From NCBI RefSeq assembly GCF_016756495.1, contig NZ_AP023245.1, positions 186,001 to 250,000 on the forward strand: a stretch of DNA of 64,000 bases, given 5' to 3'. Positions 42,490 to 48,753 of the stretch are shown piece by piece. The DNA is from Mesorhizobium sp. 113-3-3. GTDB taxonomy: Bacteria > Pseudomonadota > Alphaproteobacteria > Rhizobiales > Rhizobiaceae. Every line of letters starts with the position of its first letter. The first letter of the stretch is position 1. Under the pieces are notes generated by a model that searched no databases, had not been told where the DNA came from, and saw only the letters and a program-made list of their open reading frames with translations. The position numbers and the translations under genes were made by a program.

Positions 42490-43210
42490 TTGTTCTGCCG
42501 GTTGTCGCTCTTGCTGGAGCCCCGGAACACAAACGCCGCAACGAAATAGACAAGCAGATCGAGCAAGAAGCACCCTTGTGAAAGCTCTCCCGTTGGGCGA
42601 TCTGGCGGCTTATTCAGGAGGTCCCGCCAGTGGCGCGCTTCTCCAACTTCCTAGCTGCGATCAAATGCGCGACTGGAAGCATCCATTTCTAAGATCAGCA
42701 GCGCGGCAAGATCCACCCCTGCGGACTGTCATTATCGGGGGACGCGCGCAGCCGCTTGCGGCGGATCGTCCGCTTTGTAACACCTTTCCCGGGAGCCTGT
42801 CATGGCGCCATTCCTCCATCGCTAACCAGCCGATTGAGGCTGATGGCCTTCAGGGAAGGAAATCCCGAAAGCCGGAAACTCAGCAGGGGGATCATTTACC
42901 GCTCCGACGCCTGCGTCGAGCAGGCAGGGGGCCATGCCAGGCACATATTGGCCGGTGAGGGTGAGCTGGGCCTGGATCGACCATGCGTCATGCGCGGCCG
43001 ATCGCTTCCTGCTCTGCATAGTCTCATATGGCGCCCTTCGCCGGGGCCGGTCGGTCCCGCATCCCGCCTCACGGCGGCGCTATGCTGATGCTCCTTCGGC
43101 CGCCGTGTTGAACCGGTCTCAGGGCCACGAACGTGCTCCAGCACCGAACTGACTTATTCCCGCTGACGGACATTTCGGTGCTTCCGCCTTGTACGCCCTT
43201 TTACACATTG

Positions 43211-43313
43211 GTCGGGAGAGCAGGGGCTCTCCCGACGGAGAGTCAGAGGAGTGAGCGGGTTTTTCGCGACGGGTTGTAAGCGGAAGGAGAGGCCTTCGGC
43301 GCCCGTCGCGGAG
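43211..43313 (+). promoter_or_regulatory. Two-hairpin mRNA leader of the ArdC-like gene
   Basis: Hairpin A (43211-43236) is a perfect 11-bp stem with loop AGGG (GTCGGGAGAGC / GCTCTCCCGAC). Hairpin B has outer arms CGCGACGGG (43265-43273) and CCCGTCGCG (43302-43310), and an inner stem GAAGG/CCTTC (43283-43287 / 43293-43297) with loop AGAGG. The last base of the outer 3' arm is the first base of the Shine-Dalgarno GGAG (43310-43313), seven bases before the ATG. Folding could therefore control ribosome access. A related leader precedes the ParB-like gene. Confidence 0.65.
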
Positions 43314-43320
43314 AACCGCG

Positions 43321-44283
43321 ATGTCTGTCCGGACCAATCAAACCCATGCCGTCGCCGACAGGTCGAACCTCTACGACGAGATCACCGGCAAGATAATTGC
43401 CGAGCTGGAAGCGGGTCGTTTTCCCTGGGTTCAGCCATGGGGCACTTCCGCGGCAAAAGCCCCGCTTTCCCTGCCGCAGAATGCCAGCACGCATCGCGCG
43501 TACAGCGGGATCAACGTGCTAATCCTCTGGGGCGCCGTCGTCGAACGCGGGTTCTCAACACAGAGTTGGATAACCTATCGACAGGCTTTCGCGCTCGGCG
43601 GGAACGTCCGCAGAGGCGAGCACGGGACAACGATCGTCTATGCCGATCGTTTTGTCCCCGATCACGAGAAGAAGCGCGCTCGCGAGACGGGCGAGGAGGC
43701 TCAAGCCGTACCGTTCCTCAAGCGCTTCACCGTTTTCAACATCGAGCAATGTGAAGGGCTACCTGACGAAGTCGCAGCTTCGGCCCCGCTGTCGGTGGCA
43801 AGCCCGATCGAACGGCGGGTCGAGGCGCTGATCAAGGCCACCGGTATCGACTTCCGTGTTGGCGGCGACAGGGCGTTCTATGTGCCTGCCCACGATTATA
43901 TCCAGGTGCCTCCGCCCCAAGCTTACTTCGAGCCAATCAACTGGCATCGGACAGCCTTGCATGAACTCGGTCATGCAACCGGTCACAGTTCACGCCTGGA
44001 TCGTAAATTCTCCGGCTCTACCGCCTCCAGAAAATATGCGTTCGAGGAACTCGTGGCAGAGATCAACGCGGCCTTCTGCTGCGCGGCCTTGGGCATCGTG
44101 CCTACTGTTCGGCATGCGGATTATATCGGCTCATGGCTAGAGGTTCTGAAAGAGGACAATCGTGCCATCGTTCGTGCCGCCAGCCAGGCCAGCAAGGCCG
44201 CGGAGTGGCTTCTTGGCCACCTGCCGGATGAGGTCGGAGCATCCATCGAGTTGGGCGCAGGCAAAGCTAGAAGGGCTGCATAA
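43321..44283 (+). CDS. ArdC-like antirestriction protein (zincin)
   Basis: A 320-residue protein of the ArdC type. The N-terminal ssDNA-binding domain spans about residues 14-130 (DEITGKIIAELEAGRFPWVQ, AYSGINVLILWG, FALGGNVRRGEHGTTIVYAD). The C-terminal zincin-like metallopeptidase domain spans about 165-290 with an intact HExxH in WHRTALHELGHATGHSSRL and the downstream EELVAEINAAF. ArdC proteins bind single-stranded DNA and protect incoming plasmid DNA in the recipient. First gene of a plasmid/ICE-type block, with the structured leader just upstream. Confidence 0.9.
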   Translation: MSVRTNQTHAVADRSNLYDEITGKIIAELEAGRFPWVQPWGTSAAKAPLSLPQNASTHRAYSGINVLILWGAVVERGFSTQSWITYRQAFALGGNVRRGEHGTTIVYADRFVPDHEKKRARETGEEAQAVPFLKRFTVFNIEQCEGLPDEVAASAPLSVASPIERRVEALIKATGIDFRVGGDRAFYVPAHDYIQVPPPQAYFEPINWHRTALHELGHATGHSSRLDRKFSGSTASRKYAFEELVAEINAAFCCAALGIVPTVRHADYIGSWLEVLKEDNRAIVRAASQASKAAEWLLGHLPDEVGASIELGAGKARRAA

Positions 44284-44528
44284 CGTTGACCGGACCAGCG
44301 CAAGCGCGGTCCGTCAATCAGCGGGTTCACAGGGTTCCGCGTCGGGATTGCACGCAGCGGCCCCGCCGACCGTCCTGAGTATAAAGCGCCAGCCGCGCTT
44401 GATCGATCCCTCTCATTGTCGGCTCCTGCAGAAACTGCGTTCACGGCTGTGTGTGCTGTGCCGGCTCGGCTGGCGATCAACTCGTGCCGGATCGTGCTGG
44501 CAGGAGAGGGAGAGGATTGGAGGGATTT

Positions 44529-44577
44529 CGTGACGGGTTCAAGGTCGAGAGAGAGGCTCTCGGCGCCCGTCGCGGAG
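44529..44577 (+). promoter_or_regulatory. Hairpin leader of the ParB-like gene, homologous to the one at 43265
   Basis: Outer arms CGTGACGGG (44529-44537) and CCCGTCGCG (44566-44574, one G-U pair); inner stem CGAGAG/CTCTCG (44546-44551 / 44557-44562) with the same loop AGAGG. TCGGCGCCCGTCGCGGAGAA is identical in both leaders. Inner-stem positions 3 and 4 changed from A-T/G-C to G-C/A-T as whole pairs, which is covariation. The GGAG (44574-44577) again abuts the 3' arm, 9 bases before the ATG. Confidence 0.65.
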
Positions 44578-44586
44578 AAAACCCCG

Positions 44587-46710
44587 ATGGCCAACGCCGT
44601 TCAGAAGATAAGCCTGTCGCCTTCGCGCGACATTCCTTTCAACAAGCTGGTGCTTGCCCAGACCAATGTCAGACGTATCAAGGCCGGCGTCTCGATAGAG
44701 GAACTCGCGGCCTCGATCGCGCGCCGCGGTCTCATCCAAAGCATTCATGTTCGTCCCGTGCTCGATGCCGGGGGCAAGGAGACCGGAATGTTCGAAGTTC
44801 CCGCCGGAGGGCGCCGTTATCGCGCGCTTGAGATGCTTGTGAACCAGAAGCGCCTCGCGAAGACTGCGTCCATTCCCTGTGTCGTCGGCAATTCGTCCGG
44901 GCCGATCGCGGCCGAGGAGATCTCCCTTGCCGAGAACATTGAACACGCCCCGCTTCACCCTCTCGACCAATACCGCGCGTTCAAGAACATGCGCGACAAG
45001 GGCATGTCGGAGGAGGAGATCGCAGCCGCGTTCTTCATCTCGACAAGCGTGGTAAAACAGCGCCTCAAGCTCGCTGAATTGTCGCCGGCGCTTCTTGAGA
45101 TATACGCCGACGATGGCATGACGATCGCCCAACTTGAAGCATTCGCCGTCAGCAACGACCACGCCAGACAGGAGCAGGTCTGGGAGGCGATCAAGAACAG
45201 CTGGTCGAAGGAGCCATACCAGATCCGTCGCATGCTGACCGAGAACACCGTGCGTGCCTCCGACAAGCGGGCCGTGTTCGTCGGTCTGGAGCGCTATGAG
45301 GCGGCGGGCGGCGAAGTGCTGCGCGATCTTTTCCAGTCGGACGATGGCGGGTGGCTGCAGGACGTCCCGCTGCTTGAACGGCTGGTCACCGAGAAGCTGC
45401 AGATGATGGCCGACGAAATCGCCAGCGAAGGCTGGAAGTGGATCGAAATCGCCGTGAGTTTTCCCTATGGCGCGACAAACGGTTTGCGCGAGCTCGAGAG
45501 TACGCCGATCGCCCTCGCCAGCGACGAGCAGGCCACGCTGGCTGCGCTGCGTGACGAGTTCGAGAAGCTTCAGGCGCAGTACGAGGAGGCCAACGAGTTG
45601 CCGGATGAGGTCGACCAGCGGTTTGGCGAGATCGAAACGGCGATCAAATCGATCGAGGCGCGCCCCGTTCGCTTCGATCCCGCGGAAATCGCACGTGCGG
45701 GTGTCCTCGTCAGCATCGATACGGACGGCGCGCCCCTCGTGGAGCGCGGCTATGTGAAGCCGCAGGATGAGGCGCCCGTGACACCGGAGGGCGACAACGA
45801 TCCCGGCATCGACGGATCCGGCGTTTCGGCCACAGGCTCTAATCAGCGGGCCGTCATCACCATCGGTGGCCGGCCGGTCGACCCGGATGATGAGGAGGAG
45901 GATGGCATCAAGCCATTGCCGGATCGGCTCATCATGGAACTGACCGCAGATCGCACGCTGGCTCTGCGAGACAAGCTCGCGAACGACCCGGCAACCGCTT
46001 TTCTAGCCGTGCTTTACAAATTCGTCCGTGACACTTTCTCTCGCTACAGCGCGCAAGGCGCGGCGATGGAAGTCTTTGTCCGCGGCGCGGTCTTTCCGGT
46101 CCAGTCCGAAGGGCTTCGGGATACGATTTATGCGCGCTCGATCAAAGCCCGCCACGATGCCTGGGAAAAGCGTCTTCCAGGTGACGTCGCCGACCTTTGG
46201 AAGACCCTCTCTGCACTGACGGGCGCCGAGCAAAGTGAGCTGTTCGCGCATTGCGCATCCTTTGGCGTCAACGCGCTCTACGAAAGGGCTGATCGCTACG
46301 GAAATGGCGCCATCTCGACGCATGGCGTCCAGCAGCGCCTTGCGGATGCCGATCGCCTGGCGCGGGCAGTTCGGCTCGATATGATCGACGCCGGATGGCG
46401 CCCCACTGTCGGCAACTATCTCGGCCGCGTCACCAAGTCACGTATCCTCGAAGCCGTTCGCGAGGGAGCTGGCGAGGCCGCCTCCCAGCTCATCGATCAC
46501 CTCAAGAAGGGCGACATGGCCAAGGAAGCCGAACGCCTGCTCGCCGATAGTGGCTGGCTGCCCGAGCCTCTGCGGTTTGCCGACGGCGATGTCGGAGCAG
46601 TCGACACCAACGCTGGCGACGAAGATGAAACTCTGCCTGAGTTCCTGGCAGGAGACAATAATGTCGCTTTGGTCGACCAGGAAGAAAAACAGCTAGACGC
46701 CACCGAATAG
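44587..46710 (+). CDS. ParB/RepB-like protein of a mobile element
   Basis: About 707 residues. The N-terminal ParB nuclease-like/CTPase domain covers about residues 10-125: IPFNKLVLAQTNVRRIKAGV, EVPAGGRRYRALEMLV (equivalent of the GERRxR CTP-binding motif) and EEISLAENIEHAPLHPLDQY. A KorB/ParB-like helix-turn-helix follows near 130-170 (MSEEEIAAAFFISTSVVKQR). The long C-terminal part is less conserved, with a helical region (ALRDEFEKLQAQYEEANELP) and an acidic tail. Such long ParB-like proteins are typical of rhizobial plasmids and ICEs beside ArdC; no ParA is near, so a classical partition role is doubtful. ATG 44587 is chosen from the Shine-Dalgarno and the start of the domain. Confidence 0.85.
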   Translation: MANAVQKISLSPSRDIPFNKLVLAQTNVRRIKAGVSIEELAASIARRGLIQSIHVRPVLDAGGKETGMFEVPAGGRRYRALEMLVNQKRLAKTASIPCVVGNSSGPIAAEEISLAENIEHAPLHPLDQYRAFKNMRDKGMSEEEIAAAFFISTSVVKQRLKLAELSPALLEIYADDGMTIAQLEAFAVSNDHARQEQVWEAIKNSWSKEPYQIRRMLTENTVRASDKRAVFVGLERYEAAGGEVLRDLFQSDDGGWLQDVPLLERLVTEKLQMMADEIASEGWKWIEIAVSFPYGATNGLRELESTPIALASDEQATLAALRDEFEKLQAQYEEANELPDEVDQRFGEIETAIKSIEARPVRFDPAEIARAGVLVSIDTDGAPLVERGYVKPQDEAPVTPEGDNDPGIDGSGVSATGSNQRAVITIGGRPVDPDDEEEDGIKPLPDRLIMELTADRTLALRDKLANDPATAFLAVLYKFVRDTFSRYSAQGAAMEVFVRGAVFPVQSEGLRDTIYARSIKARHDAWEKRLPGDVADLWKTLSALTGAEQSELFAHCASFGVNALYERADRYGNGAISTHGVQQRLADADRLARAVRLDMIDAGWRPTVGNYLGRVTKSRILEAVREGAGEAASQLIDHLKKGDMAKEAERLLADSGWLPEPLRFADGDVGAVDTNAGDEDETLPEFLAGDNNVALVDQEEKQLDATE

Positions 46711-46732
46711 GCCTTTTTCTCCCACGGCTTTC

Positions 46733-46765
46733 GCCCGGCTCTCGCAAGGGTGCCGGGCGTTTTTT
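46733..46765 (+). terminator. Rho-independent terminator after the ParB-like gene
   Basis: GCCCGGC and GCCGGGC pair across a 12-base loop and are followed by GTTTTTT. It lies 23 bases after the ParB-like stop codon and separates that transcript from the next gene. Confidence 0.8.
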
Positions 46766-46820
46766 GCGTACTGTGGTGAGAGTGAGTGTCAGGCCGGGAC
46801 GGTTGAGCCCGTTCGGTCAG

Positions 46821-46857
46821 AGAGAGCGCCGATGGGCTTTTCCCGGTCTCGCTCTCT
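46821..46857 (+). promoter_or_regulatory. Hairpin abutting the Shine-Dalgarno of the helicase-like gene
   Basis: AGAGAGCG (46821-46828) pairs with CGCTCTCT (46850-46857), with GGG/CCC able to pair inside the loop. GGAGG (46858-46862) begins at the very next base and the ATG is at 46870. The sequence differs from the two upstream leaders, but the position is the same. Confidence 0.5.
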
Positions 46858-46869
46858 GGAGGATCTCCG

Positions 46870-48753
46870 ATGAACTTCTTGTCTCCGACAATAACCGGGA
46901 ACCCGATCGCTTCCGCCGCTGCCCCTGTCGATCCAGCCGCACCAGTCTACGCGGCAGCCCTGCGTGTGCTTCCCAACCTGCTTGAGGATGCGCAGCGCGA
47001 CTGGGCCGCACTCGGTATGGAGCGTCTGCTCGTCACGCCGCTCTCGCGCTTCGCGCAAGGGCGCACCATCACGCTTCCCGAAGGCATCCTGTTTACAACC
47101 TATGCCACGCTACGCTCCGACGACCGTGGCGAGAAGGTTTCGCGCGTCAGGCAGATCGTCCAATGGTTGGGCTCGGATTTCGACGGAGTGCTCATAGTCG
47201 ACGAGGCGCACGCCATGCAGAATGCCGGCGGCGGCAAGGGAGAGGGTGGTGATGTCGCGCCCTCACAGCAAGGCCGCGCCGGCTTGGGCCTGCAGCATGC
47301 TTTGCCTGGCGCCCGTGTCGTCCATGTCTCCGCCACCGGCGCGACCACCGTCGCCAATCTAGCCTACGCCCAAAGGCTTGGCCTCTGGGGTGGCGATGAC
47401 TTTCCGTTCTCGACCCGAGCGGAGTTCGTCGAGGCGATCGAGGCGGGTGGCGTGGCGGCAATGGAGGTGCTCGCCCGGGACCTTCGTGCGCTTGGCCCTT
47501 ATACGGCACGCTCGCTCTCCTTCGACGGGGTCGAGTACGAACTGGTCGAGCATGAACTGACGCCTGAACAGCGGCGCATCTACGGCGCCTTTGCTGTCAT
47601 TCACAACCATCTCGACGCGGCCATGCAGGCCGCCAACATCACCGGCGACAGCGGCACGTTGAACCGCCAGGCCAAGTCCGCCGCGCGCTCGGCCTTCCAA
47701 AGCGCCAAGCAGCGCTTCTTCGGTCACCTGCTGACATCGATGAAGACGCCGACGCTGACCCGCTCGATCGAGCAGGATCTCCAGTCGGGGCATTCGACCG
47801 TCATTCAGATCGTCTCCACCGGCGAGGCGCTGATGGAACGCAGGCCGACGCAGGAATGGAACGATGTCCGCGTCGACATCACGCCGCGCGAATATGTGCT
47901 CGATTACCTGGAGCATTCCTTCCCGGTTCAACTCTACGAACCCTTCACGGATTCGGAAGGGAACCTGTCGTCGAGGCCGGTGTTTCGCGACGGCCAGCCC
48001 GTTGAAAGCCGCGAGGCGGTAGCGCGCCGCACGGCCCTGATCGAGAAGCTGGCGAGCTTGCCACCGGTCCCTGGCGCACTCGACCAGATCGTCCAGCGCT
48101 TCGGCACGGACATGGTCGCGGAGGTGACGGGCCGGTCCCGACGCATCGTCAGGAAGGGCGAACGCCTGATGGTCGAGGGCCGCGCCACCTCGGCCAATCT
48201 CGCTGAGACGCAGGCCTTCATGGATGACGTCAAGCGCATCCTGGTGTTCAGCGATGCCGGCGGGACGGGCCGCAGCTACCATGCGGAACTTTCGGCGCCG
48301 AACACGCACCTGCGCGTCGCGGGGCTGCTGCTGCCGATCTGGAAGCGACTTCCAAACGAGTCGAGCCGGGTCTACCGACTCCAGACCGACGATGGGGAGC
48401 GCATCATCGGACGCAGGGTTTCGGCCGCACGGGCCGCCGGCGCGCTCGCAACCGGCGTCAGCACGCTGACGGCACAAGATGCCTTCAACGGCCTTGCGGG
48501 CGGACGAACGATGCTCGACCTCCCCGAAGGGCTTCATCTGCGCCGCGTCCGCGTCATGGGCGCCAATCGCATCGAGCTGTCGGGCTTCACCGACACCATG
48601 CGCGTGCGGCTGACGGCCTACGGGCTTTTCCACGAGATCATATCCTGGAAGCTGCGCATGTTCGTCCCCACGGACGCAAGCGGGCCTGCGGTGCTCGCCA
48701 AGATCATCGAGCGTCATCCGATACAGCGCATCAGCGAGAGGGAGGCTAGCTGA
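46870..48753 (+). CDS. Strawberry-notch-type helicase relative with two internal deletions
   Basis: 627 codons, against roughly 1400-1500 residues for members I know of this plasmid-borne methylase/helicase family. The first 35 residues (MNFLSPTITGNPIASAAAPV) match the usual N-terminus. The frame then jumps near 46976-46985 straight into helicase text (EDAQRDWAALGMERL), so the methyltransferase-like part and the Walker A region are missing. Walker B (GVLIVDEAHAMQNAGGGKGE) and motif III (VHVSATGATT) are present. A second jump near 48313-48320 joins SDAGGTGRSYHAELSAPNTH with GLLLPIWKRLPNESSRVYRL, removing most of the second RecA-like domain. Both joins keep the frame. ATPase activity is unlikely. 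It overlaps the primase-like gene by one base. Confidence 0.8.
   Translation: MNFLSPTITGNPIASAAAPVDPAAPVYAAALRVLPNLLEDAQRDWAALGMERLLVTPLSRFAQGRTITLPEGILFTTYATLRSDDRGEKVSRVRQIVQWLGSDFDGVLIVDEAHAMQNAGGGKGEGGDVAPSQQGRAGLGLQHALPGARVVHVSATGATTVANLAYAQRLGLWGGDDFPFSTRAEFVEAIEAGGVAAMEVLARDLRALGPYTARSLSFDGVEYELVEHELTPEQRRIYGAFAVIHNHLDAAMQAANITGDSGTLNRQAKSAARSAFQSAKQRFFGHLLTSMKTPTLTRSIEQDLQSGHSTVIQIVSTGEALMERRPTQEWNDVRVDITPREYVLDYLEHSFPVQLYEPFTDSEGNLSSRPVFRDGQPVESREAVARRTALIEKLASLPPVPGALDQIVQRFGTDMVAEVTGRSRRIVRKGERLMVEGRATSANLAETQAFMDDVKRILVFSDAGGTGRSYHAELSAPNTHLRVAGLLLPIWKRLPNESSRVYRLQTDDGERIIGRRVSAARAAGALATGVSTLTAQDAFNGLAGGRTMLDLPEGLHLRRVRVMGANRIELSGFTDTMRVRLTAYGLFHEIISWKLRMFVPTDASGPAVLAKIIERHPIQRISEREAS

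What the first reader, a model, noticed from the sequence alone, without database searches (positions are those of the whole stretch)
43265..44586. Two homologous, covarying hairpin leaders against the Shine-Dalgarno of ardC-like and parB-like genes
The leaders at 43265-43313 and 44529-44577 share a 20-nt identical 3' core (TCGGCGCCCGTCGCGGAGAA) and the same nested hairpin with loop AGAGG. The inner stem changed GAAGG/CCTTC to GAGAG/CTCTC through two compensatory pair changes, and one outer C-G pair became a G-U. In both, the outer 3' arm ends on the first base of the GGAG. The genes behind them are unrelated, so the leaders were kept or copied independently of coding sequence. This looks like a shared translational switch or protein-binding site that coordinates early genes of a mobile element.
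Basis: partly seen in the sequence, partly recalled or inferred. Interest (0 to 1): 0.82.

Follow-up and report, generated by a model that had tools for sequence, protein, structure and literature searches.

The report
RNA hairpin leaders on plasmid establishment genes
A conserved RNA hairpin predicted to hide the ribosome-binding site sits directly in front of several unrelated plasmid genes thought to help a plasmid settle in a new cell, and it looks like a widespread RNA family of alphaproteobacterial mobile elements that the Rfam catalogue did not match.

Summary
The leaders before ardC (43237-43323) and the parB-like gene (44503-44589) belong to a structured RNA family found in 90 of 397 genomes of the order and 29 of 385 of the class. 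In 398 genomes of the phylum, 34 matched, all of the same class. No Rfam 15 family reached its threshold on it.

Of 255 hits, 245 end at an ATG. The 5' arm can pair with the Shine-Dalgarno. All 8 inner-stem pairs covary, and wobble pairs point to the coding strand. It precedes ArdC, ParB-like, DUF932, RadC and unknown genes. A sister class (window 46767-46872) precedes helicase, DUF6878 and KlcA/ArdB-type genes.

Best reading: a cis-acting translational leader defining an establishment regulon of conjugative elements. Translational control is inferred; trigger and transcript start are unknown.

Against: tree-aware covariation tests were weak (none significant; one pair), no sigma-70-like promoter was found nearby, and there are no experimental data.

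The parts
43237..43323 (+). class I leader of ardC, from just before the AGAG repeat to the start codon
   Evidence: R1 90.2 bits, E 1.8e-24; R2 83.3 bits. The leader was among the sequences both models were built from.
43239..43248 (+). AGAG-NN-AGAG purine repeat of leader 1
   Evidence: strict AGAGNNAGAG in 124 of 150 class I leaders; conservation starts here in the de novo alignment as far as printed
43262..43273 (+). P1 5' arm (UUU + CGCGACGGG); the U run faces the Shine-Dalgarno
   Evidence: folds; pair counts
43280..43300 (+). P2 inner stem with AGAGG loop (43288-43292)
   Evidence: all 8 P2 pairs show changes on both sides in A6
43302..43313 (+). P1 3' arm CCCGUCGCG running into the Shine-Dalgarno GGAG (43310-43313)
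   Evidence: GGAG in 145 of 150; at least 3 of 4 SD bases pairable in 134 of 150
43321..44283 (+). ArdC antirestriction protein gene (ArdcN + zincin MPTase-PolyVal)
   Evidence: Pfam PF08401 and PF18818
44503..44589 (+). class I leader of the parB-like gene
   Evidence: R1 84.9 bits, E 6.9e-23; also among the sequences R1 was built from
44505..44514 (+). AGAG-NN-AGAG purine repeat of leader 2
   Evidence: sequence; alignment
44529..44537 (+). P1 5' arm CGUGACGGG of leader 2
   Evidence: fold; pair table
44544..44564 (+). P2 inner stem GUCGAGAG/CUCUCGGC with AGAGG loop of leader 2
44566..44577 (+). P1 3' arm CCCGUCGCG running into the Shine-Dalgarno GGAG (44574-44577)
44587..46710 (+). ParB-like gene (ParB_N + HTH_ParB)
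   Evidence: Pfam; annotated relative in L256
46767..46872 (+). class II (sister) leader before the strawberry-notch helicase gene
   Evidence: R3 75.9 bits, E 1.2e-17 (the window copy is one of the 15 sequences R3 was built from); first seen as a 14.8-bit hit of R1, E 0.035
46870..48753 (+). AAA_34/Helicase_C_4 (strawberry notch) helicase gene, internally shortened against a relative
   Evidence: Pfam; blastp to the L256 gene

Best explanation
This is a family of cis-acting structured mRNA leaders (about 87 nt in class I, about 110 nt in class II) that control translation of the gene directly downstream. Anatomy: a 5' AGAG-NN-AGAG repeat, an outer stem whose upper part (GACGGG/CCCGUC) is nearly invariant, a 5' bulge (UUGARG), a sequence-variable but pairing-conserved inner stem, a GA-rich terminal loop, and a 3' arm that merges with the Shine-Dalgarno 7-9 nt before the start codon. 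Shown here by sequence analysis: a conserved fold on the coding strand, placed at start codons, and able to cover the Shine-Dalgarno. Inferred: that it is transcribed, that the resting leader lowers ribosome entry, and that a diffusible factor recognises the invariant parts (GA loop and repeat, bulge beside GACGGG), so that all genes carrying it are switched together. The regulon (ArdC, KlcA/ArdB-type antirestriction, ParB-like, RadC, DUF932, DUF6878, strawberry-notch methylase/helicase) looks like an establishment and anti-restriction set of conjugative plasmids and, from copies on chromosome-sized contigs, probably integrated elements. ArdC of R388 is needed in the recipient (PMC7213743), so the likely use is a brief shared burst of translation on entry or under a particular cell state. 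Factor and timing are unknown.
For: Breadth: 90 of 397 order genomes at E<=0.001 and 29 of 385 class genomes at E<=0.01, two of the 29 only at E about 0.005, own genome counted in both; 34 of 398 phylum-sample genomes, all of the same class, though how many of the 398 belong to other classes is not shown; 85 and 97 plasmid records by blastn, 38 and 37 typed conjugative. Position: of 255 distinct hits, 245 end in ATG and 3 in GTG (the model includes the ATG, so this partly follows from construction). Structure: 150 leaders aligned de novo give 93.4% of cells paired against 89.2% shuffled, 13 pairs changed on both sides (0 of 500 shuffles reach it), covariation score 0.291 against 0.206 shuffled and 0.046-0.100 when slid. 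Strand: 367 G-U against 64 A-C/C-A of 2684 cells. Shine-Dalgarno: unpaired probability 0.16 against 0.44 with shuffled leaders, 60 leaders sampled; at least 3 of 4 SD bases pairable in 134 of 150. Regulon: ParB 96, ArdC 83, DUF932 23, unknown 185-aa 16, RadC 5, unknown ~130-aa 5, others 10, of 238 with a reading frame. In 73 of 73 loci with two or more class I leaders all lie on one strand. Class II: 56 distinct leaders before three named families plus one unknown gene; 35 of 249 genomes at E<=0.01, three of them only at E 0.002-0.005. Mobile context: relaxase and VirB4-type hits on the window's own contig.
Against: No expression, probing or transfer data. A phylogeny-simulating null gave no significant pair (best E 0.7), although 5 of the top 7 column pairs were structural; a branch-event test gave one pair after Bonferroni (0.016), with the next two ranks also structural. 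50 of 150 leaders break one SD pair (cols 32-89). The start codon is no less accessible than with shuffled leaders (0.50 against 0.46). No sigma-70-like promoter was found in 42900-46900 (0 found, shuffles 0.5), so it is not shown that the leaders are transcribed. No regulator was identified. The ArdC and ParB leaders of one element do not co-evolve measurably, which gives no support to an element-specific regulator. MOB typing of 85 and 51 of 97 plasmid records non-mobilizable.
Confidence: 0.7

Rival explanations
1. mRNA stability or processing element: the hairpin protects the 5' end or directs RNase III/E cutting, and the SD overlap is incidental.
For: A very stable stem in both window copies. 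Fixed sequence in upper P1 would fit a nuclease or protein site. The start codon itself is not more occluded than in shuffled leaders.
Against: The 5' arm keeps complementarity to the SD (C-G to U-G at cols 33-88 in 60 of 150 without losing the pair), and the spacing from the last SD-like tetramer to ATG is 7-9 nt in 144 of 150. A pure stability hairpin need not end on the SD.
Confidence: 0.13
2. Double-stranded DNA operator: P1 is an inverted repeat bound by a transcriptional repressor, for instance the ParB-like protein acting like KorB (KorB recalled, not tested).
For: P1 is an interrupted palindrome, and a ParB/HTH_ParB protein is encoded in the module. Shared operators before several establishment operons are known, e.g. 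Reg of p576 (PMC8708921, passages).
Against: The half-sites are asymmetric in most copies (U-G at cols 36-84 in 97 of 150, G-U at cols 35-85 in 36 of 150). P2 keeps pairing while its sequence changes. 367 G-U against 64 A-C cells point to selection on one strand as single-stranded nucleic acid. The element is placed at the start codon; no conserved block further upstream was seen in the part of the 60-nt upstream alignment that was printed, and no sigma-70-like promoter was found near the window copies.
Confidence: 0.08
3. Single-stranded-DNA promoter of the Frpo type on the transferred strand.
For: The gene set resembles leading-region/anti-defence genes, the copies are co-directional (73 of 73 loci), and ssDNA promoters are described in anti-defence islands whose genes share one orientation (PMC11541004, passages).
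Against: Wobble pairs fit the coding strand, not the template strand that would have to fold (367 against 64). The hairpin ends on the SD and abuts the ATG, leaving no room for a transcribed leader. The sigma-70 pattern scan of the double strand found nothing; hexamers formed within the folded stem were not modelled.
Confidence: 0.05
4. Passive repeat: the leaders are inherited or copied cassettes without present function.
For: Leaders follow gene lineages.
Against: Kept across ParB genes down to 48% amino-acid identity, compensated changes, occurrence before several unrelated families, and a conservation boundary at the AGAG repeat.
Confidence: 0.04

Closest known systems
EGeRS1 sequences of pLS20-family plasmids (PMC8708921: abstract and passages read)
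   Same: A conserved, inverted-repeat-rich sequence repeated immediately upstream of the RBS of several establishment operons including that of ardC; mechanism unknown.
   Different: 400-750 bp, Bacillus plasmids, placed before operons; here an 87-110 nt fold ending on the SD of individual genes in Alphaproteobacteria.
Frpo / ssDNA promoters of leading regions (PMC11541004 and PMC8708921: passages read)
   Same: Inverted-repeat elements before anti-defence genes that share one orientation.
   Different: Those act in transcription from single-stranded transferred DNA; here the coding strand is under selection and the fold overlaps the SD.
radC RNA motif, Rfam RF01754 (PMC2864571: table entry seen in a passage; its association with 5' UTRs of DNA-handling genes is recalled)
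   Same: Proteobacterial RNA candidate; by recall a cis-element before DNA-handling genes.
   Different: 0 of 17 leader-bearing genomes have an RF01754 match over its cut-off, and the listed weak matches do not lie at our leaders (list cut).
STAXI motif, RF01728 (PMC2864571: passage read)
   Same: Near antirestriction, Ssb and integrase genes.
   Different: Tandem pseudoknots in Enterobacteriales; not among the Rfam matches of our leaders.
SD-sequestering leaders in general (ribosomal-protein leaders, ROSE thermometers; recalled)
   Same: A hairpin that covers the Shine-Dalgarno.
   Different: No Rfam match over threshold; different gene set; trigger unknown.

Membership tests
radC RNA motif (RF01754) | score over the curated cut-off (40 bits) of the covariance model | tested here: not met
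   0 of 17 genomes over cut-off; listed sub-threshold matches lie elsewhere; the list was cut. Also absent at E<=10 on leader 1.
STAXI (RF01728) | match to the Rfam model (tandem pseudoknots) | tested here: not met
   Not among matches at E<=1 in the window stretch, at E<=10 on leader 1, or at E<=1 in 20 leader loci
any Rfam 15 family | match at gathering score | tested here: not met
   0 matches in the whole window; in 20 loci at E<=1 no match overlaps a leader; on leader 1 alone at E<=10 only sub-threshold hits, best mir-4850, 18.1 of 93 bits, E 0.23
EGeRS1 | 400-750 bp conserved region with multiple inverted repeats immediately upstream of the RBS of establishment operons | tested here: not met
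   Conservation here spans about 87-110 nt with a 5' boundary at the AGAG repeat; no direct sequence comparison was made
ssDNA promoter (Frpo type) | folding of the transferred template strand | tested here: not met
   G-U 367 against A-C 64 on the coding strand
ssDNA promoter (Frpo type) | location in the leading region next to oriT | not tested
   Relaxase hit at C3:3769 and VirB4-type hit at C3:27357 on the same contig, but oriT was not located
cis-regulatory translational leader RNA | conserved structure directly 5' of genes, with covariation | tested here: met
   tree-aware tests weaker
cis-regulatory translational leader RNA | the element is part of the mRNA | not testable with these tools
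   no transcript data; no sigma-70-like promoter found upstream
cis-regulatory translational leader RNA | structure sequesters the SD | tested here: met
   predicted SD unpaired probability 0.16 against 0.44; prediction only
cis-regulatory translational leader RNA | ligand- or protein-dependent change of translation | not testable with these tools
   needs reporter and binding experiments

The most novel reading that the evidence does not exclude
An RNA-level entry switch: one diffusible factor, host- or element-encoded, reads the same hairpin family before every gene of a plasmid's anti-restriction/establishment set, so that their translation goes on and off together around DNA entry. This would be a post-transcriptional counterpart of ssDNA promoters and repressor-based zygotic induction, built gene by gene and conserved across the Alphaproteobacteria in two structural classes.
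Probability: 0.35. Interest if true: 0.88.

Novelty: new variant of a known kind. Interest (0 to 1): 0.73.

Why it matters
How conjugative elements of Alphaproteobacteria time their anti-restriction and establishment genes seems open; in the plasmids read about here the answers are transcriptional or of unknown mechanism. A short, searchable RNA tag before each such gene makes the question testable, gives a handle to find a regulator by RNA pull-down, and marks unknown genes (185-aa and ~130-aa families, DUF932, DUF6878) as likely members of the same programme. It is also a large structured RNA family on which no Rfam 15 family reached its threshold.

Tried and rejected
radC motif: my first suspicion from memory; rejected by the Rfam scans and by searching RF01754 in 17 leader-bearing genomes.

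Coding leader peptide: the parB frame is open through leader 2 and a similar peptide can be read in leader 1, but across 150 leaders no frame is kept.

Upstream hairpin P0 (sequence 5' of the AGAG repeat with the spacer after it) and an alternative pairing of that spacer with the SD-ATG stretch: permutation gave 0 and 5 of 2000 in the ParB class but 1014 and 133 of 2000 in the ArdC class, and nothing clear in the DUF932 (682, 282) or 185-aa (186, 1105) classes. Kept only as a possibility for ParB leaders; relatedness is not controlled.

Own R-scape-like test: simulated null heavy-tailed, nothing significant. Branch-event test: one pair significant. Both are reported as weak.

Promoters and terminators: the pattern scan of 42900-46900 found no sigma-70-like site and no more terminator-like sites than shuffles (3 against 3.6).

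Phages: no match to leader 2. The Paracoccus pBEN record had no annotated features in the stretch.

Literature: nine searches of the held open-access library listed no paper whose title or printed abstract start describes this element; listings were capped. I saw passages of five papers only (PMC2864571, PMC8708921, PMC7213743, PMC5512222, PMC11541004; of PMC8708921 also the abstract). The 2017 survey of 224 candidate structured RNAs (recalled) is not held, so absence from print is not established.

Among those 13 are RadC-type and ~130-aa-type leaders, so the pair statistics do not cover them. The 255 hits include leaders cut short at locus ends, a few of them second copies of the same leader, and a few chance hits. 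Loci were not de-duplicated by organism. E-values of R1-R3 are rough by the tool's own statement. The alignment print was cut.

Full report
Observation. The 20-nt core is exact at 43296-43315 and 44560-44579, with chance expectation 0.01 even at 3 mismatches. Both fold as described, below all 200 shuffles each (z -5.0 and -3.7). Two inner pairs are compensated and one outer pair is a wobble. Two details change: similarity begins further 5', at an AGAG-NN-AGAG repeat (43239, 44505), and in both predicted folds the outer stem runs through the Shine-Dalgarno rather than stopping at its first base.

A family. An exact 16-nt piece of the core was sought in genome contigs. The scan stopped at 120 stretches; 44 of them hold the complete leader before an ATG, at 46 places, besides the two in the window. 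A covariance model of 47 distinct copies, the window's two among them (R1), scored the window leaders at E about 1e-23, found seven clear copies in the window's own genome on all three contigs, and gave hits in 29 of 385 class genomes (E<=0.01, two of them only about 0.005) and 90 of 397 order genomes (E<=0.001), with up to 11 matches in one genome; the own genome is counted in each. A broader model (R2) over 398 genomes of the phylum found 34 with hits, all of the same class; how many of the 398 are of other classes is not shown. The plasmid collection has 85 and 97 records with matches to leaders 1 and 2; the organisms named in the listings are, to my knowledge, alphaproteobacteria. The phage collection has none for leader 2. 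Rfam 15 gave no match over threshold in the window, none at E<=1 in the region, only sub-threshold miRNA, sRNA and lncRNA models at E<=10 on leader 1 alone (best E 0.23), and none overlapping a leader in 20 loci.

What follows the leader. Of 255 distinct hits, 245 end in ATG and 3 in GTG (the model includes the ATG, so this is partly by construction), and 238 open a reading frame of at least 40 residues. Clusters: ParB-like 96, ArdC 83, a 398-aa family 23, a 185-aa family 16, RadC 5, a ~130-aa family 5, ten others that include chance hits. The 398-aa family is DUF932 by homology to two RefSeq-annotated genes (23 of 23 members), although its representative gave no Pfam match. The 185-aa family has no Pfam or NCBIfam match; its relative in L258 is annotated as RadC (15 of 16 members match it), which I could not confirm. 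The representative of the five RadC proteins matches TIGR00608 and PF04002. In 73 of 73 loci with two or more class I leaders all point the same way, most often ArdC > ParB (34) or DUF932 > ParB (11).

A second class. Weak R2 hits of about 100 nt recurred further along the module. Aligned, they form a sister class (A7) with the same order of parts: AGAG repeat, GGGACGGGUUUGAG, GA-rich loop, CCCGUCCC-like 3' arm, CUCUCC, Shine-Dalgarno, ATG. In the first 15, 14 precede a strawberry-notch helicase gene and one a KlcA/ArdB-like gene. RNAalifold gave this class little covariation support. Its model R3 matches 35 of 249 order genomes at E<=0.01, three of them only at 0.002-0.005, one of these at a class I leader, and over the fetched loci it finds class I leaders weakly. 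The 56 distinct copies precede the helicase (named in most by the printed N-terminus), DUF6878 (four of them homologous to the RefSeq-annotated L258 gene, the fifth being that gene), KlcA/ArdB-type antirestriction genes (three, one confirmed as PF03230) and one unknown gene. In Thioclava p5 the consecutive genes annotated DUF932, RadC and DUF6878 each carry a leader. The window has this class at 46767-46872 (75.9 bits, but it is one of the sequences R3 was built from).

Is it RNA, and does it fold? In a de novo alignment of 150 of the 163 non-redundant class I leaders (A6) the named structure has 93.4% of cells paired (shuffled 89.2), 13 of 20 pairs with changes on both sides (shuffled 7.6), covariation score 0.291 (shuffled 0.206 +/- 0.004; slid 0.046-0.100), each with 0 of 500 shuffles as high; all 8 P2 pairs show such changes, while upper P1 is nearly invariant. 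The wobble count (367 G-U against 64 A-C/C-A of 2684 cells) points to the coding strand as the one that folds. Against this: my tree-simulated null gave a best E of 0.7, and a branch-event test gave one pair at 0.016 after Bonferroni, with ranks 1-3 of 2303 all structural. The invariance of GACGGG/CCCGUC exceeds what pairing alone asks for; I read it as recognition of sequence (inference).

Shine-Dalgarno. GGAG is present in 145 of 150. At least three of its four bases can pair with the 5' arm in 134. Its predicted unpaired probability is 0.16 against 0.44 when the leader is shuffled (60 sampled). The start codon shows no such effect (0.50 against 0.46). Spacing to ATG is 7-9 nt in 144 of 150. 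No sigma-70-like promoter was found in 42900-46900, so transcription of the leaders is assumed, not shown.

Inheritance. In 121 order genomes, of 30 ArdC loci fetched, the 14 at least 72% identical to the window's have the leader and the 16 at 58% or less do not. Of 30 ParB loci fetched, the 20 at least 48% identical have it; the 10 at 45% or less have no strong one, two showing weak hits of 20-24 bits. ArdC and ParB leaders within an element are not more alike than between elements (0.686 against 0.662, 26 loci; 418 of 2000 permutations as high). So the leaders look like old parts of each gene, and there is no sign of an element-specific lock and key; a factor shared across the class is easier to reconcile (inference).

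Mobile setting. The window's contig carries a relaxase hit (C3:3769) and a VirB4-type hit (C3:27357). The related M. jarvisii plasmid has ArdC, ParB, methyltransferase/helicase, toprim and DUF2493 genes in a row. ArdC of R388 is needed in the recipient and is a ssDNA-binding antirestriction protein (PMC7213743, passages). ArdC-N proteins are tied to conjugative elements, and DdrB-like ParB domains of polyvalent proteins are proposed to be DNases unrelated to partition (PMC5512222, passages); whether the window's ParB-like protein is of that kind was not tested. MOB typing calls about half of the matching plasmid records non-mobilizable (43 of 85, 51 of 97).

Mechanism and rivals. I commit to translational control by a Shine-Dalgarno-covering RNA leader shared by an establishment regulon (0.7). 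Transcription of the leader, the step from structure to control of translation, the existence of a trans factor and the timing on entry are inferred. Stability element (0.13), DNA operator (0.08), ssDNA promoter (0.05) and passive repeat (0.04) are less likely for the reasons in their sections. What it works like: an SD-sequestering leader, placed as EGeRS1 or Frpo elements are placed. What it is a member of: no Rfam 15 family over threshold, not radC, not STAXI.

Noticed in passing
window 46870-48753: The strawberry-notch helicase gene is internally shortened: it aligns to the 1439-aa relative in L256 only at 534-998 and 1295-1439, so the methyltransferase half and a later stretch are missing, while its class II leader is kept.
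   Followed up: partly
G000 C1:5968763-5970516: A second ArdC/ParB leader pair on the chromosome-sized contig: ArdC 93% identical to the window's, ParB match of only 123 residues, both leaders strong.
   Followed up: no
window 43211-43236: A perfect 11-bp inverted repeat with a 4-nt loop lies just 5' of the AGAG repeat of leader 1; a GC-rich inverted repeat of another sequence is seen upstream of several printed ArdC and DUF932 leaders elsewhere.
   Followed up: partly
L065:3501-3579, L191:6835-6912, L240:2718-2803, L244:5640-5725, L245:5137-5222: Divergent leaders before a ~130-aa unknown family seem to have a small upstream hairpin in place of the AGAG repeat and a different apical stem (by eye), perhaps a third class.
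   Followed up: no
L192:5048-5605 and relatives: A 185-aa family without Pfam or NCBIfam match, repeatedly under a class I leader after ParB; a relative is annotated RadC in one RefSeq record, unconfirmed.
   Followed up: partly
window 46732-46765: An 8-bp GC-rich hairpin with a 12-nt loop and a run of six T follows the parB-like stop codon, perhaps an intrinsic terminator; the pattern scan does not list it (its loop limit is 8), and the stretch gives sub-threshold hits to unrelated sRNA families. If it terminates, the helicase leader belongs to its own transcript.
   Followed up: partly
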